DNA from: Coriobacteriia bacterium
GTDB taxonomy: Bacteria; Actinomycetota; Coriobacteriia; Anaerosomatales; Anaerosomataceae
Length of the DNA stretch: 54,362 nucleotides
Assembly (NCBI GenBank): GCA_030652115.1
Contig: JAUSBK010000002.1
Span: 1 to 54,362 of the forward strand
Reading direction: 5' to 3'
Shown here: piece after piece, positions 8,695-37,521 of the stretch
Layout of the letters: every line of letters begins with the position of its first letter
Position numbering within the stretch: the stretch's first letter is position 1
Made by a program: the position numbers and the translations under genes
Notes under the pieces: generated by a model
Seen by the model: only the letters and a program-made list of their open reading frames with translations
Database searches by the model: none
What the model was told of the DNA's origin: nothing

Positions 8695-8704
8695 CACCTG
8701 AGCT

Positions 8705-8732
8705 GCGGCGACTTCGGTCGCCGCTCCTTATT
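8705..8732 (+). terminator. Strong UUCG-loop hairpin, probable intrinsic terminator
   Basis: An 8-bp perfect GC-rich stem (GCGGCGAC with GTCGCCGC) closes on a TTCG tetraloop and is followed by TCCTTATT. The T-tract is short, so termination strength is uncertain. It sits just inside the 30-kb module. Confidence 0.55.
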
Positions 8733-11217: not shown

Positions 11218-11327
11218 GGGCGCTATTCTAACCGAGGGGCGGTTGCGTGTCGCGTTCGGCAGCGCACGCGCGCGGGGAGCGGGCTCGTCGGGCGGTGCAT
11301 TCTCGGGCAAGAGCAAGGGGGGGGGGC

Positions 11328-15041: not shown

Positions 15042-17053
15042 GTCCGCGTGCGGCGACCGACGGGAAGGTCGCCCAGGCGAAGACCGCCAAGGCGAAGACC
15101 GCCGCGGCCAGTGCGTCCGACGCCGCCGCCTCGCCCATCAGGGTCCTGCTCCTCGACGACGAGACCGAGCATCTGGACCGCACCGAGGAGGCGATTCGCT
15201 CGGCGTGGCCCTTTGTGGCGGGACCGCTGAGGTCGGCCGAGGTCGATCTTGTCTTGGATCGGTGCGAGGACGTGGGCGCCGCTCTCGAGGCGGTGGGGAC
15301 CACCGGCTACGACGTCGTCATCGCCGACGTCTTCATGCCGGAGGATTCGCCCGGCGCGCCGCTCACCGACGCCGGTGGCGCCCTCCGCCTCATACGCGGG
15401 CTCGACGGCATGCCTGACGAGCCGCTGGTGGTCATCACCACGAACAAGTACTCGGGAGTGGGGGCATGGCTCGACGAGGAGCTGCGGGCGCAGCCGAGCG
15501 ATGCACCGTGGCTGCTCGTCGTCCAGAAGCCCACCGGACTCGGCAGCGATGACGAGTCGGTCCTTCTCGACACCACGACGTGGAAGGGCTTGCTCTGCAA
15601 CGCCATCTGCCGCGCGCGCGACCTGCGCTGGAGGCAGGGGTTCGCGACGAGCGAGCTCAACCGCATCGCGCGGTTCAGCAAGGCCCTCCAGTCGATCCGG
15701 GCGCGGGAGCACGACCTGCGCCGGGCGCCGTTGGTCTTCGTCGAGGGGCCCGCAGGTTCCGGACGCGAGATGTTCGCTCGGTGGATGCACGAGCTGCGCA
15801 CCCGCCCCGATGAACCGGCCCACTGGAGCATCCTGCACACCGGCGGAGGGCATCCGCCGGTGCAGTTGCGCGCGAGCCTGTTCGGAGCAGCGGGCCAGCC
15901 GGGCAAGCTCGAAGAGGCCGGCCGGGGCGTCGTCTTCGTGGATCCGATCGATGGGAGCCCGCAGTTCGGGCACGCGCTCGACCGGTTCGTCCGCGACGCG
16001 GTCGTGACCGGGCGATTCCTCTTCGGGCGCGAAGGCGAACCCCACGATGCGCGCGAGTACGCGGGAGCGCTGGTGGTCGGTATGGAGGACGCCGTCCGGG
16101 TCGGTGACGATCGCGACCTGTCCGACTCCTGGCGCAGCGCGATCGCGAGCCGGGTGGTGTTGCCGCCGGTACCGGAGTTGTTCGACGATCTGGCCGGCTT
16201 CGCGATGGACTTCATCAACCGGCGACGGCGCGACCGTGGTGTGCCACTCGTGGAGGAGCTGGCTCCCGAAGCGATCGCGGCGCTGCGCGGGCGTCCGTGG
16301 CCGGGCAACCTGAAGGAGATCGAGGGCTTCCTCGCTTCGTTGGACGAGCGGTGCTTCGCGACGAGGATCACCGGCGCGGACGTGAGCGCAGAGATCGCGA
16401 TGCGTGGGGAGGCGGCGGTGCACGCCGGAGCCGAGGTGCCGGCGCTCGCGGCCAGTTCGGAGGCGAGAGCGGCGGATCCCGGCTACGCCGAGGATTGGCG
16501 GCTGCTCATCGACGCGGTGGACGGCCGCCGCAAGGTACGGTTCACCCTTCGGTCGTCAAGCGGCGACGTCCACTTCACATCCGCCGGTGTCACCTCTCCC
16601 GCGATCATCGCGGGGCTGTACAAGGTCAACGTGAGAAAGGCGCCCGGATCGGGTCCCGAACTGGTACTCGTACGCCGCGAACCGCTCGACGACCTCTCCG
16701 TGGACATGTCGGACTGGGCCCGCAGCCTGTGCCTCATCGCCCCCGTCTGCGGGTTCGGGGCGCTGCACGTGGAGTTCGTCGAGAACGAACCCAGGATCGT
16801 CGCGAAGAGCGTCGAGGGAATCCAAAAGAAGCTGCAGCGGGCCGGTCTCAACGACGCTTCGGGCGAAGCTCGGATCCGCATCGAGGCCTCCAAGGGGGGC
16901 ATCGAGTTCTCGGGACGCTGCGAGTGCGCCGAGGAGATCGTCGTCCCCGTAACCCGAGAGCGGTTCAACGACTACAGGCGTACCGTCAACGCCATCAAGG
17001 ACGTCGAGGTTGCCGTCAACGCTATCAAGGACCGCGCCCAGAAGCGGCCCTGA
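15038..17053 (+). CDS. Response regulator with degenerate NtrC-type AAA domain
   Basis: The 671-residue protein starts with an Ala/Lys-rich linker. A receiver domain follows (LLLDDE at 38-42, Asp97 in VVIADVFMP as phospho-acceptor, Lys164 in VVQKP). Next comes an NtrC-like AAA region with a Walker A variant GPAGSGRE (237-244, Lys replaced by Arg), a Walker-B-like GVVFVDPID, and GRPWPGNLKEIEGF, the usual end of sigma-54 activator AAA domains. The C-terminal third is an unrecognised beta-rich region and no Fis-type HTH is evident. Arg in place of the Walker A Lys argues against ATP hydrolysis, and the sigma-54-contacting GAFTGA loop is not visible. It overlaps the sensor gene by 4 bases. It probably transmits the sensor's state to the downstream system, maybe by protein contacts. 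Confidence 0.82.
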   Translation: MSPRAATDGKVAQAKTAKAKTAAASASDAAASPIRVLLLDDETEHLDRTEEAIRSAWPFVAGPLRSAEVDLVLDRCEDVGAALEAVGTTGYDVVIADVFMPEDSPGAPLTDAGGALRLIRGLDGMPDEPLVVITTNKYSGVGAWLDEELRAQPSDAPWLLVVQKPTGLGSDDESVLLDTTTWKGLLCNAICRARDLRWRQGFATSELNRIARFSKALQSIRAREHDLRRAPLVFVEGPAGSGREMFARWMHELRTRPDEPAHWSILHTGGGHPPVQLRASLFGAAGQPGKLEEAGRGVVFVDPIDGSPQFGHALDRFVRDAVVTGRFLFGREGEPHDAREYAGALVVGMEDAVRVGDDRDLSDSWRSAIASRVVLPPVPELFDDLAGFAMDFINRRRRDRGVPLVEELAPEAIAALRGRPWPGNLKEIEGFLASLDERCFATRITGADVSAEIAMRGEAAVHAGAEVPALAASSEARAADPGYAEDWRLLIDAVDGRRKVRFTLRSSSGDVHFTSAGVTSPAIIAGLYKVNVRKAPGSGPELVLVRREPLDDLSVDMSDWARSLCLIAPVCGFGALHVEFVENEPRIVAKSVEGIQKKLQRAGLNDASGEARIRIEASKGGIEFSGRCECAEEIVVPVTRERFNDYRRTVNAIKDVEVAVNAIKDRAQKRP

Positions 17054-17216: not shown

Positions 17217-17375
17217 ATGCCGCTGTTCGTCTCTGCAACCGTGCGTCAGGCCGCTCCGCGCACCCGGCTCCCGCAGGAGTTCCGCACCCAGAACCTGATC
17301 TGCGACGAGCCGAGTCACCCGCTCCCGATCCGCATGGTTCGAGCGATCGCTAACGACACAGTCACTGCAGGCTGA
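17217..17375 (+). CDS. Small protein, unknown (52 aa)
   Basis: This short frame has an excellent ribosome binding site (GGGGAGG) seven bases before ATG 17217 and ends 19 bases before the next gene, which also has a strong site. The product (MPLFVSATVRQAAPRTRLP ... RMVRAIANDTVTAG) has no recognised motif, membrane segment or Cys pair. It is the first gene after the regulatory gap and may be a leader or small subunit of the conjugation system. Coding status is inferred from the translation signals. Confidence 0.6.
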   Translation: MPLFVSATVRQAAPRTRLPQEFRTQNLICDEPSHPLPIRMVRAIANDTVTAG

Positions 17376-17394
17376 ACGAGGAGGTCCGAGAAAG

Positions 17395-18213
17395 ATGAAT
17401 GACGACATCCGTACCGATACGACGATCGACCGGATAGCAACCCCTACCGCCCCGACCGACGCACCGGGTCGCACACCGCACCGCCCGACTCGTGACGGAG
17501 CCGAGCGCGTCTTCCGCGCGGTAGCGCTCCAGACCTCGCGCTCGATGCTCAACCCGGCAGTCGGTGGAGCCACGCAGCACGATATCGGCCGGCTTGCCGC
17601 CCGCTCCGAGCTTCACAACGTGGGCAAGTCCCCCGGCTCCCGCGTCGCGGTCGTCACTTTCGGGACCGAAGCTCAAACCGTTGCGCGGAGGAAGTTCGCA
17701 ACCGAGTGGGCCACCCATCTCGCGGTCGATCAGACGACCTGTGGCACCCAGGACTCGCCTGCCAGCATATGCCGATGCTTGGACTCGTTGGCGGCGGTCC
17801 TCGACGGGCTGCCTGACGACATTACGGCCCAGCTCCGCGTTATCACCAACGGCGACCTGTTCATCGAGGACGATGATCGTTTGCACGACCTGGCGCTCGA
17901 GCTTGGTGAGATGAACGTGTCGATCACGTTCATCAACGTGGCAGAGGAGGTGTCGGACACACTCCTTGCGGTGGCGTCCGTCCTTGAGCCTGAGGTCCGT
18001 GTGAAGGTCCGGTCCCTGTCCTCCTCCGATTGGATTCTTTCTGCGTTCCGATTCGCTGTCGAGCGCGCAACCGGTGAGCGCCGGGACGAGCTCGCGCCTT
18101 ATCTCGGCCGCGCCTTCGATGCACTCGACACACGGCGTGCGGCCGCCGACCAGGACGCCGTTTCATCCTGTCCCTCGACCCGCGAGCCCGCCCCGGCGCT
18201 CGCCGTAGCCTGA
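17395..18213 (+). CDS. von Willebrand factor A (vWA) domain protein with altered MIDAS
   Basis: The 272-residue protein has a vWA-like alternation: RVAVVTFGTEAQ (82-93), a helix pair, LRVITNGDLF (147-156) and VSITFINVAEE (175-185). The usual D-x-S-x-S metal site appears as Q-T-S-R-S (46-50) and the later Asp as Asn (TNGD), so the MIDAS is only partly conserved. vWA proteins often act as substrate adaptors or scaffolds for AAA ATPases, and an AAA gene lies three genes downstream. ATG 17395 has GGAGG upstream. No signal peptide is seen, so it is cytoplasmic. It is probably a receptor or adaptor in the tagging machinery. Confidence 0.72.
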   Translation: MNDDIRTDTTIDRIATPTAPTDAPGRTPHRPTRDGAERVFRAVALQTSRSMLNPAVGGATQHDIGRLAARSELHNVGKSPGSRVAVVTFGTEAQTVARRKFATEWATHLAVDQTTCGTQDSPASICRCLDSLAAVLDGLPDDITAQLRVITNGDLFIEDDDRLHDLALELGEMNVSITFINVAEEVSDTLLAVASVLEPEVRVKVRSLSSSDWILSAFRFAVERATGERRDELAPYLGRAFDALDTRRAAADQDAVSSCPSTREPAPALAVA

Positions 18214-18270
18214 CGGCCGACAGCCGAGTGTTCAGGGTGTCTGGCGACTTACGAAGCGGAGGGGAACGCG

Positions 18271-18885
18271 GTGGACTTCATCGATCAGGCTGCTCTTGTT
18301 CTGCTTGCGACGTTGCTGCCCCTCGTGGCGCGGCTTGACAGCAGGCGGCGGTTGGCGGGATGGCTCGCGGCCGGGGTGCTGGGGGCGGGTCTCTGGGTAG
18401 CGGAGCGGAGTCTCACGGCGGCGGGGCTCACGCTCGCCGACGGCATCCGCCTGGCCAGGGGCGGCGATCTTGCGTGGCTCGTATGGTCGGCAGCAGTCGT
18501 TGTGGCCGCGACTATCTGGCTGAGTGCTGCCTGGCCTTCGAGCAGCCCGGGTGCCTGGTCGGCCGGGCGTGCATCGACCTCTCAGGGTCGACCATTCACG
18601 TCGGCCAGGACTGCCGCATCCGGCGGATCGGTTGCGCGGCCAAAGGCCACGACCGGGCGACCGGCGCCAACGCAGCCCAGGCCCGCCGCACCGAAGAGCG
18701 CCTCCGCCGGAGCGTCGGCTCGGAACGTCGGTACCGCATCGAGCGGTGCAGTGGCCGTGTTTCCGATCTGCCCGACCTGCCTCGAACCTGTCACGCAAGA
18801 CGGCGCTGCGTGCGTGCGTGGTCACGTGTCCCATCGCGTGTGCCTGGATTCGGGCGGGCGGTGCTGCGCGTGCATGAGCGTCTGA
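18271..18885 (+). CDS. Membrane-anchored RING-H2-like protein 1 (putative E3)
   Basis: The 204-residue protein has two or three hydrophobic segments in its first 90 residues (AALVLLATLLPLVA; LAWLVWSAAVVVAATIWLSA). A Ser/Thr/Ala/Pro-rich linker follows, and the end is a cysteine-rich module: C-x2-C, ten residues, C-x3-H-x2-H-x2-C, six residues, C-x2-C. This is the C3H2C3 order of RING-H2 domains, which in eukaryotes bind E2 enzymes. With E1, E2 and ubiquitin-like genes in the same run, a membrane-bound E3-like role is the natural inference. The GTG start is preceded by GCGGAGGGG. A simple zinc ribbon is the main alternative. Confidence 0.78.
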   Translation: MDFIDQAALVLLATLLPLVARLDSRRRLAGWLAAGVLGAGLWVAERSLTAAGLTLADGIRLARGGDLAWLVWSAAVVVAATIWLSAAWPSSSPGAWSAGRASTSQGRPFTSARTAASGGSVARPKATTGRPAPTQPRPAAPKSASAGASARNVGTASSGAVAVFPICPTCLEPVTQDGAACVRGHVSHRVCLDSGGRCCACMSV

Positions 18886-18919
18886 TCCGGAATCCCGTTC
18901 GGATACGAGGAGGTGCGCG

Positions 18920-20170
18920 ATGAGTGCTGCATTCGCAGTCTTGCCTGTGTTGCTGGGAGTACCGGTGGTGGTTGCGGGTGCCGCTGCCTACGGTGTCGGC
19001 TGGCTGACCCTCCAGGTTGCCAGGCTCACGTTCAAAGGCGTAGCGAAAGCCGCGGGGTTCTGCGGTCGGGTCGCTGTCGAGCATGCGCTCCCGGCCGCAC
19101 GCGCAGGACTCTCGCGGATTCGCAACCAGGCCGAAGCACGGCGCGAGGCGGCCCGTGATCAGCCGGTGGCGGTCGACATGCGTCGCCGCATGGTGCAACC
19201 GGCACTCCCGCTGCCGACGGCAGCACCGGGCCTAGGTCAGTCTTCGTCGGCCGCGGCGCCGCGTGCCGTGACCGTGCGCCCTGTGACAGACCGACAGGAT
19301 GTCGGGCGGTCGATCGGGTCACCTGCCGTGACTCGCGTTGAGCGCCCGAGCCCGGTAGAGCCCTTCGTGCCTGAGACGGCGGAAGTGGTCACCTCAGCCC
19401 TCGCGGTCGAGCCCGGCATTCAGCCTGTCACGATCGTCTGGAACCGGGAGACGCCTGCAGACGGTGCTGTCCTGCTGCTGCCCGCCGAAGAAGGGGCAGC
19501 CGTCCGTGGGACGCTCCAGTTCGATGGGTCGCTGATGGCGGCCCGCGACTCGCTCGTCGCGGCGGCGGAGGAAGTGGCGCTCGCCGAGACCATCGGCCTC
19601 GAGGAGGCGGCGAGTCTTGGCGCGACGCTCGACCGCCTGGCGGCATCGCTCGAGCTCGGAGAGGACCCGCTCGTGGTGCTCGTCGGTGCGCGAGACGTGC
19701 TCGCAGAGGCCAAGGCGGCGGTCGAAGCGTTCGAGACCGAAGAGCAGGCTGCCGTGCTCCGGCGCATCGGGCATCGCAAAGAGGTTCGGCTGCTCATGGA
19801 GACGCTGCGCGCGCTGTCATACACGCACATCCGAATCGCCGAGCGTGACGGTCGGGCTGGCTGGACGGTTGTGAAAGCGGTTCCGCCGGGCGGCCGGCAG
19901 GACGTCACCGCGGTCATCAATGCCGACGGATCGGCGCTCTTCGACACGCGGGGCGCGTTCCGCGGCCGTGCGTGCGTGAAAGCGCTCGAGGCGGTGCGGA
20001 AGGACTTCGTCTCCCGCCTCGGCATCGATCTTCGGATCGAGGAGCTCGTGCACGCTGCGGGTGCCGGCGGTCAGACGACCACCGGGCGCACTCACGAGCT
20101 GACCGCCAGGCGACGGGCCAGTGAGCAGACAACGACCTTGTCGCATGTCGGAGTGCAGGAGGTGTTCTGA
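18920..20170 (+). CDS. Membrane-anchored protein of the conjugation cluster, unknown
   Basis: The 416-residue protein begins with an N-terminal hydrophobic helix pair (VLPVLLGVPVVVAGAAAYGV), then a basic helical stretch, a Pro/Ala-rich linker and a mostly helical 230-residue C-terminal domain. The latter includes LLMETLRALSYTHIRIAER and a beta hairpin (DVTAVINADGSALFDTRG). I do not recognise it. The start ATG 18920 has GAGGAGG upstream. The gene ends one base before the AAA ATPase start, so the two are probably co-translated and may form a membrane platform for the ATPase. Confidence 0.75.
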   Translation: MSAAFAVLPVLLGVPVVVAGAAAYGVGWLTLQVARLTFKGVAKAAGFCGRVAVEHALPAARAGLSRIRNQAEARREAARDQPVAVDMRRRMVQPALPLPTAAPGLGQSSSAAAPRAVTVRPVTDRQDVGRSIGSPAVTRVERPSPVEPFVPETAEVVTSALAVEPGIQPVTIVWNRETPADGAVLLLPAEEGAAVRGTLQFDGSLMAARDSLVAAAEEVALAETIGLEEAASLGATLDRLAASLELGEDPLVVLVGARDVLAEAKAAVEAFETEEQAAVLRRIGHRKEVRLLMETLRALSYTHIRIAERDGRAGWTVVKAVPPGGRQDVTAVINADGSALFDTRGAFRGRACVKALEAVRKDFVSRLGIDLRIEELVHAAGAGGQTTTGRTHELTARRRASEQTTTLSHVGVQEVF

Positions 20171-20171
20171 G

Positions 20172-22079
20172 ATGGCCGCCAACACCGCCGCCCAGCTCGC
20201 GCAACCGATGCCGAAGTCGGAACCGCAGGCCGCCCAGGTGGAGTTCCCGCGCCCGCTGTGGCTCCGCGCGCTGACCCGCGAGATCGAGGGCGGCACGTCG
20301 CACGTCTTCCTGCTTCACGGTAACGTGCGCGACGAGTTCGCCCTGACGGTGGACGGCCGCCCCGCGCTCTGGCCGATCGAGCAGTATCTGCGGAACCGCC
20401 TGCCGGACATCCAGCTTTGCGTGCGGGTCTCTCTCTCACGCGGCGTCGAGCTCGTCCTGCCGCTGTCGAGCGGAGGCCTCACCGACCTCGAGCGCACCGT
20501 GATCGAGGGGCAGAAGATCCACTCTCCGGCCGATGAAGAGCAGCGCGATCGCGGACCAGCCGATGAGACCGAAGCGGAGCGCGTGCTGCGAGACATCGCC
20601 CGGGAGACCGCCGGCGAGAACGGGCCCGCGTCTCCGGAGGAGGCCTTCCGTATCGTCGACCGCTTGCTCCGGACGCGCGAAGGCCTGCTCGTGCTGGTGG
20701 ACTTCGTGCATCATCTGCTGCCCGATGCGCCCGGAGGGAGCGTTCCGACCGACCAGCGCATGTTGGCCGAGTGTGTCATCCGGTGGACCAGCGATCCGGC
20801 TATACGCACGGTTGTGGAGCCCGACGGCAGCCGTCGTCGGCGCCAGGCGGTCGTGGCGTTGCTTGCGCCGGACCTCGGCCTGCTCTGCTCGGAACTCACA
20901 AGCAAGGATTCCGGTGTGCAGACAATCGCTGTCGGTCGTCCGTCAGAGGAGGAGCGCCTGTCGCTCATCAGCACGCTGCGCGACGCAAACCTCTTCCCGC
21001 TCTCGGAAGAACTTGATCTCGCGCAGGCCGCGAACATCACCGGCGGCATGACGAACCGCGATATCCGCGATCTCGGTCTGGGTGCCGTGCGCCGAAAGGA
21101 GCGAATGGACGCGGCTACGGTCGCCGATCGCAAGTCGTCGTGCATTGCGGCCGATACCGACGGCGTACTGCACCTCATGCCGGAGCTCGTGACGCCCGAG
21201 ATGGTGGGCGGACATCGCGCCCTTAAGGCCGATTTCGGCACTCTCGCGGAGCGGTTCCGCGCGGCTGACGCCGAGAGCCGCAAGCGGTTGCCGCAGCTGA
21301 TCGTGCTCGTCGGTCCGCCCGGCACCGGTAAGTCGCTGAACGCGAAATCGTGGGCATATTCTGCCGCCATGACCTATGTGGAGCTCGGGCGGCTGCTCGA
21401 TATGTGGGTGGGTCAGTCCGAGCGCCGGTTCGACTACGCGCTCCAGGTGCTCGTCGACCTCGCTCCCGCCGTCTTGTTCGTGGACGAGATCGAGAAGGAA
21501 TTCGGCGCTGACGCCGGCAGCTCGGTGGGCAACCGCCTGCAGAGCAAGCTTCTCAAGTTCCTCTCGAGCGAGCCCGTGCGGGGGAAGGTCGTTGTGATCG
21601 CTGCCACTAACTACCCCGAGCAGCTCGATCCTGCGCTCCTGTCTCGTGCGCGCGTGTATCCCGTTCTCGCGCCGACAGCGGGTGACCGGGCCGAGATCTT
21701 GATGGCCATGACCGCCCAGAACGGGGTTCCGCTCGATCCACAGGTTAGTGTCGAGCGCGTTGCAGCCGCTCTTGCCGGCCTGTCGGGTCGCGATATCCGA
21801 CAGGTGTGGGACCTGGCGTGCGACCTCTCCTCGGGCGCGCCGGTGAACGAGCAAGTCCTTGAGGAGTGCATCGCCGAGTACGTCCCCTCGGAAGGTTGGG
21901 CCCAGCGGCTGATGACGTTGCGGGCCATCCAGGCGTGCCGCTACCTTCGCCACCTACCCGAGGTGCCGCTGCCGTGGATCGGAGAGGGCGTCACGTCTCA
22001 TGGGCTGGCCCGTGACCGCGACCGGCTTGAGGCCGAAATCGTGCGCGCCTACACGGCGACGCGCGTCGAGCATGCCTAA
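20172..22079 (+). CDS. AAA ATPase of the conjugation cluster
   Basis: The 635-residue protein has an N-terminal degenerate ATPase-like region (SHVFLLHGNVRDEF at 43-56, LLVLVDFVHHL at 172-182). A full AAA module follows: Walker A GPPGTGKS (381-388), Walker B VLFVDEIEKEF with Asp438/Glu439, sensor-1 AATNYPEQLDPALLSRAR and a C-terminal helical lid. This domain order is like Ycf46-type and related classical AAA proteins that remodel or unfold proteins. It has no protease domain of its own. Placed with vWA and RING genes, it is a good candidate for extracting tagged substrates. ATG 20172 is chosen since it follows the upstream stop by one base. Confidence 0.87.
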   Translation: MAANTAAQLAQPMPKSEPQAAQVEFPRPLWLRALTREIEGGTSHVFLLHGNVRDEFALTVDGRPALWPIEQYLRNRLPDIQLCVRVSLSRGVELVLPLSSGGLTDLERTVIEGQKIHSPADEEQRDRGPADETEAERVLRDIARETAGENGPASPEEAFRIVDRLLRTREGLLVLVDFVHHLLPDAPGGSVPTDQRMLAECVIRWTSDPAIRTVVEPDGSRRRRQAVVALLAPDLGLLCSELTSKDSGVQTIAVGRPSEEERLSLISTLRDANLFPLSEELDLAQAANITGGMTNRDIRDLGLGAVRRKERMDAATVADRKSSCIAADTDGVLHLMPELVTPEMVGGHRALKADFGTLAERFRAADAESRKRLPQLIVLVGPPGTGKSLNAKSWAYSAAMTYVELGRLLDMWVGQSERRFDYALQVLVDLAPAVLFVDEIEKEFGADAGSSVGNRLQSKLLKFLSSEPVRGKVVVIAATNYPEQLDPALLSRARVYPVLAPTAGDRAEILMAMTAQNGVPLDPQVSVERVAAALAGLSGRDIRQVWDLACDLSSGAPVNEQVLEECIAEYVPSEGWAQRLMTLRAIQACRYLRHLPEVPLPWIGEGVTSHGLARDRDRLEAEIVRAYTATRVEHA

Positions 22080-22095
22080 CAGAAAGGAGGACGCC

Positions 22096-23295
22096 ATGCA
22101 GACCGCAATCGCCGGGGGTGTCACCCGCTCGCCGTTCGATGCCGGGATGCCGGAGCGGATTCTCGCGGGTGAGAGCGACCCCTTGACCGAGGTGATGCGG
22201 GCGTGGGCGGGCGGAGCGCTGGGTGGTGCGATCGCCGGGCTGGGCGCTCTCTCCGATGAGGCACAGCGTGCGAGCCTGCTCTCCCGGCTTGCGCTCGAGG
22301 ACTTCAAGCGTGGAGGCACCCCCGGAGCGGCCGAGCGGCTCGTCGCCGCGAGCGAGGGAGCACTCGAACGTCATCCTGGCGATGACCCCTGGCCCGCTGT
22401 AGCGTACGCGACGGGCGTCGCGGCGCTCGTCGGCGAAGTCCCGGCCCGCATGCGCGACTGCGCACTTCGTGCAGTGCAGGACGTCCGCGCGCGTACCGCG
22501 GACCCGGATGCCCTGGTCGCACTGGCTGGCCCGATGACGGCGCTGCGGTACGTGGTGCCGGTGCCGGACGAGGAGATCGGATCACTGGCGCGCAGCGCGC
22601 TTGCGCTGTCCCCCTACCACTCGGGTGCGCTCAGACTGTGGGCGGAGCACGTCGCCGGCCATCCCGTCCGGGAGCCCGGTGCGCTGGCACGCGCGTACGC
22701 GGATGTCGCAGACACCCACGCACTCACCCAGGCCGAGTGCGATGCGTCGGTCACCGACGTCCGCGACATAGGAGACGCGCTGTTGCGCGCCCGTATCGCC
22801 ATGGCGGCGCGGGATCCGGGCGGCGCGGCGAGTGCCTGCGATGCGGCAGGCGAGGGCGAGGCGTGGGTGCCGCGCGTCCGCTCCCGTATCGCGCTCGATC
22901 TTGGTCGGGTCGAGGAGGCGCAGCGAATCGCCTCGGATGACGAACCCTGGGCGATTGTTACGGTCGCGCTCTGTGCTCTCGCGCGAGACACGAACGCTCC
23001 GGTAGATGTCGGAAGGCTTGTACGCGCGGCGCGGCAGGGGCGCCCGGTCGATGCGGCCGAGCTTGCTGCTGCGCTGGCGCCTAACCACGACGAGACTGCT
23101 CGACGTGTTCTCGCCGGGGGTCTGAGTGCCTACCCGGGAAGCGAGGCGCTTCGTTCGTCGTTCGCCAGCCTGCTCAAGGGCCGACTGAAGCCCCGCACCG
23201 CGGCGCGTCGCTGCAGCGAGCCATCCCGCAACACCCCGGCGCGTCCGGTTCTCGCCGAGTCCGGTGTGGCCGGCTACACCGGACTGGAGATGTGA
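22096..23295 (+). CDS. Helical-repeat protein (TPR-like), unknown
   Basis: This 399-residue, Ala-rich protein is helical throughout, with repeated helix pairs (LARSALALSPYHSGALRLWAE; LLRARIAMAARDPGGAASAC; RSRIALDLGRVEEAQRIA) typical of TPR or SEL-like solenoids. GAAAGGAGG precedes ATG 22096 by seven bases, 16 bases after the AAA gene, so it is in the same transcript. The C-terminal 35 residues are basic and Pro/Arg-rich. The likely role is a protein-interaction scaffold. No catalytic motif was found. Confidence 0.75.
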   Translation: MQTAIAGGVTRSPFDAGMPERILAGESDPLTEVMRAWAGGALGGAIAGLGALSDEAQRASLLSRLALEDFKRGGTPGAAERLVAASEGALERHPGDDPWPAVAYATGVAALVGEVPARMRDCALRAVQDVRARTADPDALVALAGPMTALRYVVPVPDEEIGSLARSALALSPYHSGALRLWAEHVAGHPVREPGALARAYADVADTHALTQAECDASVTDVRDIGDALLRARIAMAARDPGGAASACDAAGEGEAWVPRVRSRIALDLGRVEEAQRIASDDEPWAIVTVALCALARDTNAPVDVGRLVRAARQGRPVDAAELAAALAPNHDETARRVLAGGLSAYPGSEALRSSFASLLKGRLKPRTAARRCSEPSRNTPARPVLAESGVAGYTGLEM

Positions 23296-23296
23296 G

Positions 23297-23899
23297 ATGG
23301 GCGCGATGCAAATCCACTGCGCCGATGTGGTACACGGCCTCTCCGTCATCAGCCGCGTCGAGGCGACGCACGTGTGGGCGCAGGGCTGCCCGCACAGCTG
23401 TTCGGGCTGCTGCAACCAGGAATACCGTTCGGCGACCGGCGGCGCGCTGCTCGATGTGCGCGATCTCGCCGACGCGATCGCCGCGCGCCCGAGGACGAGA
23501 CTGCTTGTTCTCTCGGGAGGAGAACCGTTCGGGCAAGCCCGCGCGGCCGCCTCGCTCTGCGCCTTGCTTGCCGAGGCGCGTCCCCGCCTCGGCGTGGTGG
23601 CCTACACGGGCTACGCGCTCGAGGATCTAGTGCACGTGCCTTATGCCCGGGAGTTGTTCGAGTACGTGGATGTGCTCGTCGACGGCCCGTACATGGCCGA
23701 CATGCCTGCAGACGATGGCGTGCGGGGGTCGACCAACCAGAGGGTTATCCAGGTCGGCGCCCGTGTTCGCGCGTCCACGCTGGGCCGTCCGCCTGAGTTG
23801 CGGTTCGAGTTCCGCACCGTGCGCGGACACCTCAGGTTCATTGGGCTGCCGCCCCCAGACTGGCGCAGCCTGGATGACCCCGGGATTGCGCGCTCCTAA
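23297..23899 (+). CDS. Radical SAM enzyme, NrdG-like small type
   Basis: The 200-residue protein carries the radical SAM cluster motif CPHSCSGC (C-x3-C-x2-C) within WAQGCPHSCSGCCNQ, then LLVLSGGEPFGQ as the SAM-contacting Gly-Gly-Glu motif. It ends in a short segment RFIGLPPPDWRSL. Size and layout match NrdG/activating-enzyme-like single-domain members that cleave SAM to make a 5'-deoxyadenosyl radical. No glycyl-radical partner enzyme is nearby, so the substrate is probably a cluster protein or a modification linked to tagging. The start at ATG 23297 follows the previous stop by one base. Its last 77 bases are repeated downstream by a tandem duplication. Confidence 0.85.
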   Translation: MGAMQIHCADVVHGLSVISRVEATHVWAQGCPHSCSGCCNQEYRSATGGALLDVRDLADAIAARPRTRLLVLSGGEPFGQARAAASLCALLAEARPRLGVVAYTGYALEDLVHVPYARELFEYVDVLVDGPYMADMPADDGVRGSTNQRVIQVGARVRASTLGRPPELRFEFRTVRGHLRFIGLPPPDWRSLDDPGIARS

Positions 23900-24582
23900 G
23901 GTCGAGACGTCAAGGGAAACCGGCCGCGATGCGGTCCACGAGGAAGGGAGGTAGGAGAGATGAGGATCACGGTTCGTGACAAGTACAGCGAGGTGGAGCA
24001 GACCTTCGAGGTCACCGGCGGCGTGCCGGTCTCGATTCTGCTCGAGCCCTTGGCGGCCTCGCTCGGAGCGACGGTCGGGCCGTGCCCGGGCGAGGCCTCC
24101 ACGCTCATCCTCGAGCGCACGCAGGAGGTACCGCAGCTCGGACGATCGCTCGAGGAGAACGGCGTTCGGGACGGCGATGTCCTCCTGCTCGCCCGGTCCT
24201 GCTATGTAGACCCCTAAGCGGACACCTCAGGTTCATCGGGCTGCCACCCACGGACTGGTGCAGCGTGAATGATCCCGGAGCCGGCGCTCCCGGGGTCGAG
24301 ATGTCAAGGGAAACGGGCCGCGACGCGGCCCACGATGAAGGAGGTAGGAGAGATGAGGATCACAGTTCGTGACAAGTCCAGCGCGGTGGAGCAGACCTTC
24401 GAGGTCACCGGCGGCGTGCCGGTCTCGAGCCTGCTCGAGCAGCTGGCAGCCTCGCTCGGAGCGGTGATCGGTCCGGACGAGGTCATCAAGCCCATCCTCG
24501 AGCGCACGAGCGAGGCACTGCAGCTTGGGCGTTCGCTCGAGGAGAACGGTGTTGCGGACGGCGACGTCCTCCTGCTCGCCCG
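23823..24582 (+). repeat. Tandem duplication spanning radical-SAM end and ubiquitin-like gene
   Basis: Unit 1 (23823-24195) and unit 2 (24218-24582) are homologous along their whole length. Each contains the last 77 bases of the radical SAM gene, the same intergenic ribosome binding site (GGAGGTAGGAGAG) and a ubiquitin-like coding region. The 22 bases between them (24196-24217) are unique and encode the odd tail of the first ubiquitin-like protein. In unit 2 the radical-SAM end is now non-coding. Confidence 0.88.
23960..24217 (+). CDS. Free ubiquitin-like protein, beta-grasp
   Basis: The 85-residue protein follows the ubiquitin/YukD-like pattern. The first strands are MRITVRDK and EQTFEVTGGVPVS, the helix is ILLEPLAASLG, and the end is LGRSLEENGVRDGDVLLLAR. 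It is about 80 percent like the N-terminal domain of the next protein, from which it differs mainly at its end. The tail reads SCYVDP and has no Gly-Gly, unlike classical conjugated modifiers. The start ATG has an AGGGAGGTAGGAG site. It may be a modifier conjugated through an atypical end, a non-conjugated regulator, or an inactive duplicate. The beta-grasp call is by pattern, not by alignment. Confidence 0.8.
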   Translation: MRITVRDKYSEVEQTFEVTGGVPVSILLEPLAASLGATVGPCPGEASTLILERTQEVPQLGRSLEENGVRDGDVLLLARSCYVDP

Positions 24583-25105
24583 CGATTCGAGAGGAGGCGG
24601 ACTCCGGGAGGACCGGGTACGTGAGTTCGAGGCGAGCCTGGCCCTCATCGGGTCAGCGTCTTGCGGCCGGGTTGCCGGCCGCAAGACCGCTCCCGGTCGC
24701 TACGTGCTCGCGGTCGACGGGATCAAGGGCCTGCGCAAGCGCGATGGTCGCATTCAGGAGGTGGACGATCATCGCATCCAGATCACGCTCACCCAGGGCT
24801 ACCCCTTCGAGAAGCCGAAGGTCGATCTGGGTCCTGACATGTTCCACCCCAACTGCTGGGCGTCGGGCGCTCTTTGCTACACGTACCGCCCGCAGTGGTC
24901 TGGCACCGAGATGATCCACGCGCTTCTCGAGTTCGTCAGCGCACGCACGTTTCTGCTTGAGAGGCGCCCCGCCAACGCCGAGGCGACTGACTGGTACGGT
25001 GCGCACCCCGCAGAGGTGTCGCGTCTGGCGAACACCGCCTGGCCGTTCAGGGTGCCCGTCGTTCCGAGCGCGCTGTCACTCGCGCGTCCCGTGGCACAGG
25101 CGTGA
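24353..25105 (+). CDS. Ubiquitin-like domain fused to an E2 (UBC) domain
   Basis: The 250-residue protein has a ubiquitin-like domain at 1-78, the segment RDSRGGGLRE (77-86), and an E2 ubiquitin-conjugating domain at about 88-225. The E2 core shows YPFEKPKVDLG, the HPN motif (165-167) and GALCYTYRPQWS with Cys175 as the expected thioester cysteine. The Gly-Gly-Gly right after the last beta strand is where ubiquitin has its LRGG tail. So a protease such as the JAMM protein encoded downstream might cut here to release a mature modifier. ATG 24353 is fixed by the duplicated ribosome binding site. The stop overlaps the next start (GTGA). This is the strongest evidence for a conjugation pathway. 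Confidence 0.9.
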   Translation: MRITVRDKSSAVEQTFEVTGGVPVSSLLEQLAASLGAVIGPDEVIKPILERTSEALQLGRSLEENGVADGDVLLLARDSRGGGLREDRVREFEASLALIGSASCGRVAGRKTAPGRYVLAVDGIKGLRKRDGRIQEVDDHRIQITLTQGYPFEKPKVDLGPDMFHPNCWASGALCYTYRPQWSGTEMIHALLEFVSARTFLLERRPANAEATDWYGAHPAEVSRLANTAWPFRVPVVPSALSLARPVAQA

Positions 25106-25605
25106 TCACGATGACCTGGCTTACCGAGCCGGTGCCGGTGTGGATGGCCCTCGCGTTTGGGCTCGTGACGGTGTGCTGGTTGGCGCGCAGTCTGTTCACG
25201 GCCGGCGGGCGTGGTCTTCGCAGGCGGTGGAGGCGTCGCCGTGAGCTGCGTCTGCAGCGACTCGCAACGCGGATTTCGAGCGTGTCTGCACCGTCGCAGG
25301 TAGCGCAGCCGATCTACCAGCATCCCCACAGCGACCCTACCTGGTCGGATGCCCCGTTACCGCTGACACCGATCGCGCCTCAGCTGGTCGCGGTCGCGAC
25401 TACGCAGGCCCCACTCGTCACACCGATCTCTCCCGTCCGTCCCGCCGGTACGGCCGCGCAAGCACAGCCGTCCGCCGCGGTCGTCATCTGCGGCTGGTGC
25501 GCGCAGCCGGTGGGGCCTGACGAAGGAGTGGCGTGCGAGCGCGGTCACGCGGAACACGCCGAGTGTCGCGCCGCCATGGGCGGCCGCTGCGCGAGCTGTG
25601 CGTAG
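25102..25605 (+). CDS. Membrane-anchored RING-H2-like protein 2 (putative E3)
   Basis: The 167-residue protein has one N-terminal membrane helix (PVWMALAFGLVTVCWLA) followed by a strongly basic segment (RRRWRRRR), placing the rest in the cytoplasm by the positive-inside rule. A Pro/Thr-rich linker leads to a C-terminal module with C-x2-C, eleven residues, C-x3-H-x2-H-x2-C, seven residues, C-x2-C, a RING-H2 order nearly identical to that of the protein at 18271. It is translationally coupled to the E2 gene (GTGA overlap), supporting an E2-E3 partnership. ATG 25111 is an alternative start. Confidence 0.8.
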   Translation: MITMTWLTEPVPVWMALAFGLVTVCWLARSLFTAGGRGLRRRWRRRRELRLQRLATRISSVSAPSQVAQPIYQHPHSDPTWSDAPLPLTPIAPQLVAVATTQAPLVTPISPVRPAGTAAQAQPSAAVVICGWCAQPVGPDEGVACERGHAEHAECRAAMGGRCASCA

Positions 25606-25657
25606 CAGTGGGTGCGGACGTGTTTAACCCACGATCAGATCGAAAGGAGTGTTGACG

Positions 25658-26386
25658 ATGAATACGTACACGGGCGACACGGATCGGGTGCCTCCGGTGG
25701 GTGGGGCACCGCTCGTGACTCCGATTGGTGATCTGCGGAGGCTCGATGCGCCGCAGCGCATCGCTACCCCGCCCACCTTCGAGCTGGTACCGCTTGCGTC
25801 ACTCGGCATGCCGACGTGGACAGAGACGCCCACCCGTCCGCTGGCGGCGACGCACGAACAGGCACGGCCCAGCCGGCCGGCGCCCGATTACGTTCAGCCG
25901 ATCGGACCGGCTGTCAGGCAGCGTCCGGCTGCCGCTCCCGTCGCGAACGTTGAGGGCGCACGGGCGACCGTTGCCGCTCCGATTGGCGTGATCGCCGGCG
26001 AACGTGTTCGCGTGCGCGGCGCCCGGCGTGTGGCGCGCCGTGAGGCCCGGCGGAACGCCGTTCGCGTCTCGGTTCCGGCGATGCTCTGGGTGTTGCTGGT
26101 GGCCGCGGCGCTCGGGCCGTTCGTATCGGTGCCGCTCGCCGTCCAGCTCATCGAGGCGCGCGGATTCGCGACGGTCGGGTCGAACGCCGCGGCCGATGGT
26201 GCCGTTGTCACGACACTGGACGAGGAGGTGACCGAAGACCCAGTGATGCCGGCAGCGGTCACCAGGTCCACGGCGCCCGCTGCGTCTATGGTGACGACGC
26301 CGAGCCCGTATGCGGCCCCTTCGGCAGCCACGACGGAGACGAGCGGAGAGCTCGATGACACAGCACGCCCGCGGGGGTGGCAGTGA
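25658..26386 (+). CDS. Single-pass membrane protein, unknown
   Basis: The 242-residue protein has a Pro/Arg/Thr-rich, probably disordered N-terminal half. A basic cluster (RVRVRGARRVARREARR) precedes one membrane helix (PAMLWVLLVAAALGPFVSVPL) near residue 150, and the tail is acidic and Ser/Thr/Ala-rich. The basic cluster predicts a cytoplasmic N-terminus and an exterior C-terminus. ATG 25658 is set by AAAGGAG nine bases upstream. Several Pro-rich stretches (for example PLVTPIGDLRR) resemble those in the RING protein before it, suggesting a shared linker history or a common partner. No catalytic motif. Confidence 0.72.
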   Translation: MNTYTGDTDRVPPVGGAPLVTPIGDLRRLDAPQRIATPPTFELVPLASLGMPTWTETPTRPLAATHEQARPSRPAPDYVQPIGPAVRQRPAAAPVANVEGARATVAAPIGVIAGERVRVRGARRVARREARRNAVRVSVPAMLWVLLVAAALGPFVSVPLAVQLIEARGFATVGSNAAADGAVVTTLDEEVTEDPVMPAAVTRSTAPAASMVTTPSPYAAPSAATTETSGELDDTARPRGWQ

Positions 26387-26970
26387 TGTCCGATCACACA
26401 CACCTTGACGGCGTGGTCATCTCGCGTAGCGCTGCTGCAGCGATCGACCGATTCGCAGGGCGCGCTACAAAGGCCACCGGCACCGAGGTGATCGGGCTGC
26501 TCTTCGGGCTTCCGTTCGAGACGGTGGCCGGCGAGCGGGGGGTGTGGATCGTGCACGCCGATCTGGCCGCGGGGCAGACCGGCAGTGCGATCCACGTCGA
26601 GATGCCCGCCGAGGCGTACGGCCCCTCGTGGGCCGGCTGCCGGGAGGCGTGGCACCGGCTCGGTTTGGATGAGCTGCGGCGCGATCCGCTCGTGGTGGGG
26701 TGGTGGCACTCACACCCGAACATGGACGTGTTCATGAGCGGCACCGATGTCGATAACGCGCGGACGCAGTTCTCGCTGCCCTGGCAGGTGAGCTACGTGG
26801 TGGCGCCTCCCGGGCCGCAGCGCGCGTTCTTCGGGTGGACGGAAGACGCTCTTCGGCCAGATGTCCGCCTCCCCGCGCATGTGTGGTCCGGTCCGGATAG
26901 CGAGCTGCGGTGGCACCTGCGCGAGCAGACCGCATGTCGGATGTGGGGAGAGGAGGTGCTGGCGTGGTAA
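26386..26970 (+). CDS. JAB/JAMM metalloprotease (deubiquitinase-like)
   Basis: The 194-residue protein has a complete JAMM zinc site: Glu34 (GTEVIGLLFG), His108 and His110 in GWWHSHPNMDVFMSGTD, Ser118 and Asp121 (E ... H-x-H-x7-S-x2-D). JAMM enzymes such as Rpn11 and bacterial BilC/Cap3-like proteins cleave ubiquitin-like proteins from precursors or from targets. Here the probable substrates are the ubiquitin-like proteins encoded 2 kb upstream, including the Gly-Gly-Gly junction of the E2 fusion. ATG 26386 overlaps the previous stop by one base (TGATG). Its end overlaps the E1 start. Confidence 0.92.
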   Translation: MSDHTHLDGVVISRSAAAAIDRFAGRATKATGTEVIGLLFGLPFETVAGERGVWIVHADLAAGQTGSAIHVEMPAEAYGPSWAGCREAWHRLGLDELRRDPLVVGWWHSHPNMDVFMSGTDVDNARTQFSLPWQVSYVVAPPGPQRAFFGWTEDALRPDVRLPAHVWSGPDSELRWHLREQTACRMWGEEVLAW

Positions 26971-28256
26971 CCGGCAACAGCACGACGGGGGGGGAGCTCG
27001 GCAGGTACGCGAGCCAGGCACTCATCAACGGCTGGGACCAGGAGCGGCTGTCGGCCGCCCGGGTGCTCGTCATCGGCTACGGCGTGCTCGGGGATCCGAT
27101 CTGCCGCACGCTCGTGACGCTCGGGATCGGGACACTCGCCATCGCGGACTTCGATGTGATCGAGGAGCGCAACCTCGGCAAGCAGCCTTCGCTTGCCGCG
27201 GGATGGGACGGCACTGGTGGCGTGCCCAAGGTGGAGGTCGGCTGCCAGGAACTCGCACGGATCAACCCCAGCGTTCGGCTCGAACCACTGTGCGTGGACA
27301 TCGTGACCGGCTTCGGCGCGGCGTGCTATGCGGAGTACGACGTGGTGGTGCTCGCCGCCGACAACTACACCGCGCGCCACTGGCCGCACCGGTACGCGAC
27401 GCTGATGGGCGTGCCCGTGGTCGAGTGCGGCACGGAGGGCCTCTACGGCCAGGTCACAGTGACGTGGCCGGACGATGCCGATGCAGCGTGCTTCGCGTGT
27501 TGGGGCAACCCTCGCGAACGTCTGGCACGGGACGTCCGCAAGTCGTGTCAGGGCCTGTATCTCGACGAGCACGGCGCGAAGATCCCGATGCTGGTGGCGC
27601 CCGCAACGGCGACCGCAGGCCTCGCGTGCCTCGAAGTCCTCAAGTGCATCTTCGCCCGCGAGGAAGGCTCGGCATTCCCCAAGCCGGCGGCCGGGATGCA
27701 GTATCTGCTCGACGGCTTCGACGTGACGCGGCCGGTGATGGGCGTGCGACTCACGCGTCGCGATGATTGCGAGCACCACGAGCGGCTGGACGCGACCAAC
27801 GCGCTCGAGTATCCGCTGACGGATCAAACCATGATCTCGGACGTGCGCACATTCGTGGCAGGCAGCGCAGGCTGCGCGCCCGAGGATGTGGCGCTCGAGG
27901 TGCACTGGGACGTGCTTCACGAGTGGATCTGCCCGAACTGCCACGCGGTGGCAACGCCGCGGATCGCTGCGTCACGCGCCGGCAAGCTCGCTTGTACCGC
28001 GTGCGGATACGTGGTGTCCGAGAACGCTCTGGACACCATCCCGGTCATCCTCCACCCGTACCTGGACGACGGCGACGGGTTGACACTCGCCGACTACCAT
28101 CTGCCCGAGCGCCACGTGCTCAAGGCGAGCGCAGGCGACTGGCAGGGCTACGTGGTGCCGACTGGCACGCTCGCGCTGTGCGGGAGGGAGGTGAAGGCCG
28201 CCGAGGCTACTCCTGCGATGCGCGATCGCTTGATGAGCGCGACCGATGGCACGTGA
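26964..28256 (+). CDS. E1-like (ThiF/MoeB-type) activating enzyme
   Basis: The 430-residue protein has an E1 adenylation domain: VLVIGYGVLGDP nucleotide loop (35-45), ADFDVIEERNLGKQ (61-74, D-x3-E-x2-N-L-x-K/R-Q), Lys89 and VVVLAADNYTARH. CFAC (177-180) and a later CPNC ... CTAC form zinc-binding pairs. Cys196 in RKSCQG lies where ThiF-type enzymes have the catalytic cysteine. The C-terminal 140 residues combine a zinc ribbon and a segment probably used for E2 recruitment. GTG 26964 has GAGAGGAGG upstream and overlaps the JAMM gene by 7 bases. It should adenylate the ubiquitin-like C-terminus and pass it to the E2. Confidence 0.92.
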   Translation: MVTGNSTTGGELGRYASQALINGWDQERLSAARVLVIGYGVLGDPICRTLVTLGIGTLAIADFDVIEERNLGKQPSLAAGWDGTGGVPKVEVGCQELARINPSVRLEPLCVDIVTGFGAACYAEYDVVVLAADNYTARHWPHRYATLMGVPVVECGTEGLYGQVTVTWPDDADAACFACWGNPRERLARDVRKSCQGLYLDEHGAKIPMLVAPATATAGLACLEVLKCIFAREEGSAFPKPAAGMQYLLDGFDVTRPVMGVRLTRRDDCEHHERLDATNALEYPLTDQTMISDVRTFVAGSAGCAPEDVALEVHWDVLHEWICPNCHAVATPRIAASRAGKLACTACGYVVSENALDTIPVILHPYLDDGDGLTLADYHLPERHVLKASAGDWQGYVVPTGTLALCGREVKAAEATPAMRDRLMSATDGT

Positions 28257-28788: not shown

Positions 28789-28935
28789 ATGGAAGAGACC
28801 CCGGAGAGACTAGACCGTGTGTCGTCGAGGTCTCCCGGCTGGACGACCTCGAGTCGAGGATGCGCGGCGGCGCGGCCCGACTGGTACGGGCTTCGGGTGA
28901 CTCAGCGCTCCCTGGAGGATTGGGCGGCGCGCTAG
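28789..28935 (+). CDS. Possible small protein (48 aa)
   Basis: ATG 28789 lies 11 bases after AAGGAAGG. The frame encodes MEETPERLDRVSSRSPGW followed by a Ser/Arg-rich middle and the protein-like end DWYGLRVTQRSLEDWAAR. The middle part looks like a different frame of a coding sequence, since the next frame reads VVEVSRLDDLESRM. A frameshift inside a once longer gene is therefore possible. No family recognised. Confidence 0.35.
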   Translation: MEETPERLDRVSSRSPGWTTSSRGCAAARPDWYGLRVTQRSLEDWAAR

Positions 28936-33026: not shown

Positions 33027-33688
33027 TTGATGCAGTACGCGAGATCGTGGATGCCCGCGCCCTTCTCCTACTCGTCGTTCTTTGGGGCAGTCTGGCGGTT
33101 CACGAGATTGCACACTGTCGAGTTCTTGACTTCCTCGGTGACTCGACGCCCCTAGAGCAGGGGCGCCTCACCTGGTGGCCACACCGACACCTCTCGTTCT
33201 GGGGTTCCCTCGTCGTGCCGGCGGCGCTGCTGTTCCTGACCTCGGGCTCGTTTCTTGTCATGTGGGCGAAGCCGGTGCACTACCGCCCGGGGTCCATGCG
33301 ACTCCGCGAGCCGCTCGCGACGATACTCGTGAAGCTCGCCGGTCCCGCCGCGAACGCAGCGCTTGCCGCAGTCGCAGCCATCGCGCTGGCTGTCCTGCCG
33401 CACGACATCCCCTATGCGGCGTGGAGGGCCCTCGTTGCTGTGCTGGCTGTGAACATCACGCTCGTCGCTTTGAACATGCTGCCGATTCCTCCGCTCGATG
33501 GTGGGGCTCTCTGGCTGCTGGTGCCCTTGCCGCCGAAGGTGCGTGACATCGGTGCGGCAGCAGCAGCAGTAGCGCTTCTGGCGGTCGTCGTGGGAATGCC
33601 GCTGGCAACCCCGCTAGATCCATTCGGAGACATGGTCGGCGCCGCGGTGGACTCGACGCTCAACCTTGCGATGGACGGGCACCTGTGA
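33023..33688 (+). CDS. M50/site-2-type intramembrane metalloprotease
   Basis: The 221-residue protein is hydrophobic, with about five membrane segments. It has the zinc motif HEIAH (27-31) in the first helix and NMLPIPPLDGG in a later one, the N-x2-P-x2-DGG motif of M50 proteases. A short GRLTWWPHRHLSFWGSLVVPA loop lies between. Length and layout match the FlxA/Rip-like small S2P group lacking a PDZ domain. S2P enzymes cut membrane-anchored regulators, so one of the single-pass proteins in this cluster may be its substrate. GTG 33023 overlaps the CHAP stop by 4 bases. Confidence 0.88.
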   Translation: MIDAVREIVDARALLLLVVLWGSLAVHEIAHCRVLDFLGDSTPLEQGRLTWWPHRHLSFWGSLVVPAALLFLTSGSFLVMWAKPVHYRPGSMRLREPLATILVKLAGPAANAALAAVAAIALAVLPHDIPYAAWRALVAVLAVNITLVALNMLPIPPLDGGALWLLVPLPPKVRDIGAAAAAVALLAVVVGMPLATPLDPFGDMVGAAVDSTLNLAMDGHL

Positions 33689-37444: not shown

Positions 37445-37521
37445 ACTAACCTTGATGGCGCGATCATGTGACAACCGCTTTACTGACCACAGCCACCTTT
37501 GGTGCACGGGAGGGATCGTCT

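What the first reader, a model, noticed from the sequence alone, without database searches (positions are those of the whole stretch)
17217..28256. A complete bacterial ubiquitin-like tagging pathway with membrane RING-H2 proteins, AAA, vWA and radical SAM
One same-strand run of coupled genes encodes E1 (26964), E2 (24353), two ubiquitin-like domains, a JAMM protease (26386), two RING-H2 order proteins with membrane anchors (18271, 25102), an AAA ATPase (20172), a vWA protein (17395) and a radical SAM enzyme (23297). Known bacterial systems such as BilABCD and type II CBASS Cap2/Cap3 hold E1, E2 and JAMM parts in short operons, and as far as I know lack this combination of paired RINGs, AAA/vWA and radical SAM. 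The key residues are visible for each enzyme. A full E1-E2-E3-like cascade at a membrane is the inference.
Basis: partly seen in the sequence, partly recalled or inferred. Interest (0 to 1): 0.95.

Follow-up and report, generated by a model that had tools for sequence, protein, structure and literature searches.

The report
Bacterial ubiquitin-like tagging gene cassette
A bacterium carries a mobile block of about a dozen genes that looks like a complete miniature ubiquitin-style protein-tagging machine with membrane-anchored parts, probably a defence system; it is a rare variant of a kind of gene cluster predicted from genomes in 2020 and, as far as I know, never tested.

Summary
Window 17395-28256 is one same-strand, tightly packed 12-gene run: divergent vWA, two membrane-anchored RING-H2-patterned proteins, a two-part AAA+ ATPase, a NrdG-like radical SAM enzyme, a YukD-like UBL, a UBL-GGG-E2 fusion, a JAMM protease, an E1 with a C-terminal zinc ribbon, and three uncharacterised proteins. 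It is 90% identical, as one 11.4-kb block, to a locus in another genus of the same family. Every gene is under purifying selection; catalytic and metal-ligand residues are kept. It is rare (2 of 69 genomes of the order; none of the other 395 sampled in the phylum) and lies among defence genes. Distant E1-UBL-E2-JAMM relatives sit on a cyanobacterial plasmid and an IMG/VR viral contig.

Kaur et al. 2020 (PMC7159879) described "FtsH ternary systems" combining JAB, E1, RING E3, a UBL-E2 fusion, divergent vWA and a double AAA+ with a dead N-terminal domain; radical SAM enzymes occur in the same class. This cassette matches on these points but lacks MoxR, EAD1, a caspase effector and the vWA beta-propeller: a new variant, not a member. 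Conjugation chemistry is well supported. E3 activity is inferred: both RINGs lack the tryptophan and linchpin arginine of canonical RING E3s.

The parts
17395..18213 (+). Divergent vWA protein; metal-binding DxSxS lost (reads QTSRS)
   Evidence: PF13519 E=0.0057, sub-threshold; no MIDAS motif in either copy; 87% identical to L009 copy, dN/dS 0.33
18271..18885 (+). RING1: hydrophobic N-terminal stretches read as membrane spans, linker, C-terminal RING-H2 pattern
   Evidence: Pattern at 18769-18873; ligands invariant; dN/dS 0.39
18920..20170 (+). Uncharacterised protein with N-terminal hydrophobic segment
   Evidence: No Pfam family; DUF1257/DUF2997 idea not supported; 90.5% identical, dN/dS 0.50
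20172..22079 (+). Two-part Cdc48/FtsH-type AAA+ ATPase: N-terminal half without P-loop or Walker B, C-terminal half active
   Evidence: PF00004 5.3e-23 at 377-494; CDC48 model 4.8e-25; PDB Cdc48 1e-37; single P-loop at 381 and single Walker B at 434; halves weakly alike by hhalign, E=0.0019, probability 14%
22096..23295 (+). Uncharacterised protein, probably alpha-helical
   Evidence: No significant family; 90.5% identical, dN/dS 0.28
23297..23899 (+). NrdG-like radical SAM enzyme, CxxxCxxC present
   Evidence: PF13353 4.1e-25; TIGR02491 80.6 bits against cut-off 126.1; the only NrdG-model match in the genome; most conserved gene, 97% identity, dN/dS 0.12
23960..24217 (+). UBL1: YukD-like beta-grasp protein; no GG at its end here, but GG plus a tail in the relative
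   Evidence: PF08817 6.7e-5; tandem duplicate of 24340-24582; L009 copy reads ...DSIGGSHSAPW...
24353..25105 (+). UBL2-GGG-E2 fusion: YukD-like UBL, then GGG, then HPN-type E2 with Cys175
   Evidence: UQ_con 5.3e-7 and YukD 5.7e-4; aligns with UBE2A/Rad6 over HPN and Cys; dN/dS 0.20
25102..25605 (+). RING2: N-terminal hydrophobic stretch read as membrane span, linker, C-terminal RING-H2 pattern
   Evidence: Pattern at 25489-25599; ligands invariant; dN/dS 0.38; model has helix 11-61
25649..26386 (+). Fast-evolving protein with one hydrophobic stretch read as a membrane span
   Evidence: No family; 75.5% identical, dN/dS 0.63
26386..26970 (+). JAB/JAMM metalloprotease with complete catalytic motif
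   Evidence: Prok-JAB 1.7e-8, JAB 1e-5; best PDB match archaeal Rpn11 6fjv; motif invariant in four sequences
26964..28256 (+). E1: one ThiF adenylation domain, invariant SC cysteine, C-terminal zinc ribbon and tail
   Evidence: ThiF 5.8e-36; near full-length match to plasmid E1 H21; motifs and zinc ligands invariant
28789..28935 (+). Truncated remnant of a ClpB-like AAA+ gene that is intact in the relative
   Evidence: First codons match L009:11824-13668; homology stops near 28823; L009 protein hits AAA_2 4.2e-17 and ClpB_D2-small

Best explanation
A horizontally moving operon for reversible conjugation of a YukD-like ubiquitin-like protein at the membrane, coupled to an ATP-driven unfoldase, most likely a defence (conflict) system. 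Proposed working: the JAMM protease cuts after the GG of UBL2-GGG-E2 (and trims UBL1 where it has GG), freeing UBL and E2 (inferred). The E1 adenylates the UBL, loads it on Cys195 and passes it to E2 Cys175 (inferred from intact motifs). The two membrane-anchored RING-H2-patterned proteins bring E2~UBL to a target at the membrane (inferred). The double AAA+, with the vWA protein as adaptor, extracts or remodels the tagged target, and the JAMM protease removes the tag (inferred). The radical SAM enzyme modifies an unknown component, perhaps a peptide (speculative). Shown here: the gene set, its intact residues, its conservation and its transfer.
For: Enzyme families and intact residues. Conserved 11.4-kb block in two genera with different flanks. 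Purifying selection on every gene. Distant operons keep E1, UBL, E2 and JAMM together: Crinalium plasmid and an IMG/VR viral contig. UBLs with GG followed by extra residues, as a JAMM-processed precursor would have. Archaeal precedent: CsRpn11 cuts pro-ubiquitin after GG, and E1, E2 and small RING conjugate in vitro (PMC6043591, PMC5654768). Defence neighbours: NgoMIV restriction enzyme, DruM2-like methylase, AbiU2 HEPN, candidate PDC-S28 helicase. A very similar component set was proposed as a conflict system in PMC7159879.
Against: No experiment. The RINGs lack canonical E3-activating residues and have no Pfam match. Window UBL1 has no GG. No EAD1 or effector domain was found, so how a target is chosen or killed is unknown. 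Structure models of RING2 and UBL-E2 were poor. Membrane anchoring is read from hydrophobic stretches, not from a topology prediction.
Confidence: 0.6

Rival explanations
1. The E1-E2-UBL-JAMM part conjugates, but the RING-H2 proteins are not E3 ligases; they are membrane receptors, scaffolds or the substrates of the tag.
For: No Trp between C6 and C7 and no Arg/Lys after C8 in either RING (sequence), whereas Trp58 and Arg69 mattered in the archaeal small RING (PMC5654768). The Crinalium and viral-contig operons show no RING-H2 protein next to E1/E2/JAMM. Structure model inconclusive.
Against: The complete RING-H2 ligand set is kept in both paralogues although the rest diverged. The E2 reads YPFEKPKV at loop 4, with the Phe that my own knowledge of UbcH5 places at the RING contact. 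RING-type E3s are reported in the related FtsH-ternary operons.
Confidence: 0.4
2. A regulatory or quality-control pathway of the host or of a mobile element (for example extraction of membrane proteins, or control of conjugation), not antiviral defence.
For: A TraG/VirD4-like gene lies next to the cassette in the window and next to JAMM in the Crinalium plasmid; the relative carries an extra ClpB-like chaperone.
Against: The TraG-like gene is absent from the conserved block in the relative; the window is rich in defence genes; the gene set is sporadic, as accessory defence systems are.
Confidence: 0.3
3. A sulfur-carrier or cofactor system (ThiF/MoeB plus ThiS/MoaD-like protein and JAMM), not protein tagging.
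For: The E1's best PDB match is MoeB.
Against: A canonical HPN-Cys E2 has no known role in sulfur carriage; E1s of this family carry an extra zinc ribbon and tail absent from the MoeB-type hits, which match only the first 160-264 of 394 profile positions; no thiamine or molybdopterin genes in the cassette.
Confidence: 0.05

Closest known systems
FtsH ternary systems with a UBL tri-ligase module (Kaur et al. 2020, PMC7159879; UBL/RING part after Burroughs et al. 2011, which I could not read)
   Same: Divergent vWA without metal-chelating residues, double FtsH/Cdc48-type AAA+ with dead N-terminal half, separate JAB, E1 and RING genes, UBL fused to E2, uncharacterised helical proteins; radical SAM occurs in the class
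   Different: No MoxR in the cassette, no EAD1, no caspase effector, vWA not fused to a beta-propeller, two RINGs read as membrane-anchored, an extra stand-alone UBL, radical SAM is NrdG-like with no AMMECR1-type match at E<=0.1
Caldiarchaeum subterraneum ubiquitin operon (PMC5654768, PMC6043591)
   Same: UBL, E1, HPN E2, small RING, Rpn11-like JAMM; pro-UBL processed after GG
   Different: UBL here is YukD-like, E2 is fused to a UBL, RINGs are membrane-anchored and lack the Trp and Arg, AAA/vWA/radical SAM added
Crinalium epipsammum plasmid pCRI9333.03 E1-UBL-UBL-E2-JAMM operon and IMG/VR contig IMGVR_UViG_2521172724_000002 operon (found here)
   Same: E1 with C-terminal zinc ribbon, YukD-like UBL(s), HPN E2 and JAMM in one operon
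   Different: No vWA, double AAA, radical SAM or RING-H2 seen nearby; E2 not fused to UBL; J-domain gene beside the viral-contig operon
BilABCD, type II CBASS Cap2/Cap3, Bub
   Same: Bacterial E1, E2, UBL and JAMM logic; defence role for Bil and CBASS
   Different: BilD has an inactive plus an active adenylation domain and BilB a CEHH motif (PMC11354881); Cap2 is an E2-E1 fusion; BubCD is only a marginal match; no RING, vWA or double AAA+ in them to my knowledge

Membership tests
FtsH ternary system, UBL tri-ligase type (PMC7159879) | Third component with two FtsH-type AAA+ domains, the N-terminal one without P-loop and Walker B | tested here: met
   One P-loop (381) and one Walker B (434), both in the C-terminal half; N-terminal half only weakly alike by hhalign, E=0.0019, probability 14%
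FtsH ternary system, UBL tri-ligase type (PMC7159879) | Highly divergent vWA, metal-chelating residues sometimes lost | tested here: met
   Sub-threshold VWA_2 match, no DxSxS
FtsH ternary system, UBL tri-ligase type (PMC7159879) | MoxR AAA+ partner of the vWA protein | tested here: not met
   No MoxR in the cassette; the genome's only AAA_3 match is on another contig, C1:81276; the relative's extra AAA+ is ClpB-like
FtsH ternary system, UBL tri-ligase type (PMC7159879) | Separate JAB, E1 and RING genes and a UBL-E2 fusion | tested here: met
FtsH ternary system, UBL tri-ligase type (PMC7159879) | EAD1 on the UBL and an EAD1-linked (caspase-like) effector | tested here: not met
   No EAD1 or caspase match in any cassette protein at E<=1; an EAD2 match in the AAA is only E=0.11
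FtsH ternary system, UBL tri-ligase type (PMC7159879) | vWA fused to a beta-propeller or ClpN repeats | tested here: not met
   vWA protein is 272 aa with no second domain match
Canonical RING E3 ligase | Eight zinc ligands in RING-H2 order and spacing | tested here: met
Canonical RING E3 ligase | E2-contact Trp before C7 and linchpin Arg/Lys after C8 | tested here: not met
   Sequences ...CRAAMGGRCASCA and ...CLDSGGRCCACMSV
Canonical RING E3 ligase | Cross-brace fold | tested here: inconclusive
   Model mean pLDDT 56.5
UBC-fold E2 enzyme | HPN motif and catalytic Cys in register with known E2s | tested here: met
BilABCD | E1 with inactive plus active adenylation domains; E2 with CEHH motif | tested here: not met
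   E1 is 430 aa with one ThiF domain; E2 has HPN...C without CEHH
Any of these as a conjugation system | Covalent UBL-target conjugates | not testable with these tools
   needs biochemistry

The most novel reading that the evidence does not exclude
A bacterial E1-E2-RING cascade at the membrane in which the ubiquitin-like tag is supplied from a self-processing UBL-GG-E2 polyprotein and tagged targets are pulled out by a Cdc48/FtsH-like AAA+ with a vWA adaptor: a bacterial counterpart of membrane-protein extraction, used for defence, and needing neither MoxR nor EAD-type effectors.
Probability: 0.3. Interest if true: 0.85.

Novelty: new variant of a known kind. Interest (0 to 1): 0.6.

Why it matters
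RING-dependent ubiquitin-like conjugation has been reconstituted from an archaeon (PMC5654768) but, to my knowledge, not from bacteria; the FtsH-ternary tri-ligase class was predicted from genomes only. This cassette is compact, intact in two genera, and has a testable self-processing junction (UBL2-GGG-E2), a testable extraction motor and duplicated RINGs. It would let one ask directly whether bacteria run a full E1-E2-E3 cascade coupled to an unfoldase, and whether it defends against phage.

Tried and rejected
AlphaFold of RING2 with four sequences and of UBL-E2 with two gave low confidence, so no fold search was run on them. The idea that gene 18920 contains DUF1257/DUF2997 (Ycf35 neighbourhood) found no match there. 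The TraG-like gene at 28981 was dropped as a core part because the relative lacks it, though a TraG gene also follows JAMM in Crinalium. Searches for relatives in plasmids by E2, in phages and in viral contigs by E1 gave nothing beyond those reported; JAMM in viral contigs gave one locus, and its E1 found only itself. The Spirosoma E1 hit is a thiamine operon. The plasmid hits to the AAA gene listed cover 43-62% of it and the ones opened lie in unrelated contexts. The profile search of 396 phylum genomes with the E1 alignment gave only MoeB/MoeZ-like partial matches apart from the window. Burroughs et al. 2011 and the Bil structure paper are not in the library.
Full report
WHAT IS THERE. The window is the first 54 kb of contig 2 of a 2.38-Mb genome. 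Genes 17395-28256 lie on the + strand with spacings between a 7-bp overlap and 135 bp, so they read as one operon. Family searches support E1, E2, JAMM, AAA and radical SAM; the UBLs score below the YukD cut-off but with significant E-values, and the vWA is weak. The AAA protein has a single P-loop and Walker B, both in its C-terminal half; the N-terminal half has neither. The vWA protein has lost the DxSxS motif. RING1 and RING2 carry the full RING-H2 ligand pattern; no other six-frame ORF of the window does, and 400 shuffles gave none.

CONSERVATION. A second genome, of another genus of the same family (contig DCVQ01000025.1, 'Actinobacteria bacterium UBA2184'), holds the whole block at 90% nucleotide identity over 11.4 kb, with different DNA on both sides. 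All twelve genes are open in both, with dN/dS from 0.12 (radical SAM) to 0.63 (the protein at 25649). All eight RING ligands, E2 HPN and Cys175, the JAMM motif and the E1 motifs are kept. No other genome of the order has it (2 of 69). In 396 genomes drawn from the phylum only the window's own genome has the E2 and only it has a full-length E1 match, all others being partial MoeB-like hits. The four other genomes of the window's genus lack it. It is therefore an accessory cassette that has very probably moved between lineages.

WIDER FAMILY. The E1 found a near full-length relative on the Crinalium epipsammum plasmid pCRI9333.03, in an operon E1, UBL, UBL, E2, JAMM, TraG. The JAMM alignment found an IMG/VR viral contig with J-domain protein, E1, UBL, E2 and JAMM. 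The E1s of all three lines share the C-terminal zinc ribbon and an invariant SC cysteine. In the PDB the E2 is nearest in sequence to eukaryotic Rad6/UBE2A, and the JAMM protease to archaeal Rpn11.

UBLs. The window and Crinalium each have two similar UBLs of which only one carries GG followed by further residues. In the window that copy is fused as UBL-GGG-E2; the stand-alone copy has no GG here but has GG plus a tail in L009. The window pair is a tandem duplication that includes the end of the radical SAM gene. JAMM processing of these precursors is inferred from the archaeal case, where CsRpn11 cuts after GG (PMC6043591).

RING DOUBTS. Archaeal small-RING function was impaired by mutating Ile30, Trp58 or Arg69 (PMC5654768). 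Neither RING here has a Trp before C7 or a basic residue after C8. The E2 does keep 'YPF' at loop 4 (sequence). The RING2 model was low-confidence. E3 activity is thus plausible, not shown.

WHAT IT IS LIKE. Kaur et al. 2020 define FtsH ternary systems by a double FtsH-type AAA+ whose N-terminal domain has lost P-loop and Walker B, with a highly divergent vWA; the larger subtype adds JAB, E1, RING E3 and a UBL-E2 fusion, with JAB proposed to release the UBL. Radical SAM enzymes are reported in the class and in linked peptide-processing genes. These features are met here. MoxR, EAD1, caspase effector and beta-propeller are not. I therefore call it a new variant that works like that class, without claiming membership.

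CONTEXT AND FUNCTION. The window carries many defence-type genes: REase-ARP, HEPN AbiU2, NgoMIV restriction enzyme with DruM2-like methylase, PDC-S28 helicase, YobI-like ATPase. With the sporadic distribution this favours a conflict role. The relative has a ClpB-like AAA+ gene directly after E1 that is truncated in the window at about 28823, so the window copy may have lost a part. An M50 membrane protease, a DUF5063 gene and an MraZ-like gene lie downstream in both.

VERDICT. The novelty claim was not: the combination had been described. What remains of interest is an intact, compact, rare variant of a predicted and apparently untested class, with clear experimental handles.

Noticed in passing
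window 145-225, 1055-1136, 2222-2299, 3211-3273, 4042-4122, 4601-4681, 6913-6993, 7768-7796: About eight full or partial copies of an ~81-bp imperfect palindrome (CTAACAAG...GGACGTTAG) that folds into a long hairpin and sits mostly between single genes: they look like integron attC sites, so 1-8 kb may be a cassette array carrying defence-type genes.
   Followed up: partly
window 8541-8712, 38755-38926, 45028-45199, 54095-54266; also contig 3 and several copies in G010 C36: Dispersed 170-300-bp repeat, 90-98% identical over the 172-bp core, spaced between defence modules and at contig ends.
   Followed up: partly
L013 14483-18274: Motif LxWR[DQ] occurs twice each in JAMM, TraG and two small proteins of the Crinalium operon against under 0.05 expected each; not found in the other plasmid proteins tested. 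Possibly a docking motif.
   Followed up: partly
window 25649-26386 and 25102-25605: Linkers of RING2 and of the 25649 protein share near-identical stretches (APLVTPI, PTW[ST][DE]), perhaps a docking motif.
   Followed up: no
L009 11824-13668 and window 28789-28935: ClpB-like AAA+ gene intact after E1 in the relative, truncated in the window.
   Followed up: yes
window 28981-31419: TraG/HerA-like ATPase next to the cassette; absent from the relative's block, but a TraG gene also follows JAMM in the Crinalium plasmid.
   Followed up: partly
window 33023-33688, 36122-36958, 37468-37884; L009 13506-16995: M50 membrane protease, DUF5063 and MraZ-like genes downstream of the cassette in both genomes although the DNA between differs.
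   Followed up: partly
window 11247-17053: Large TPR-HATPase protein followed by a receiver/sigma54-type AAA+ protein directly upstream; not in the conserved block.
   Followed up: no
L019 2616-5435: Viral-contig operon J-domain, E1, UBL, E2 with C-terminal zinc ribbon, JAMM: a phage- or prophage-borne ubiquitin-like set.
   Followed up: partly
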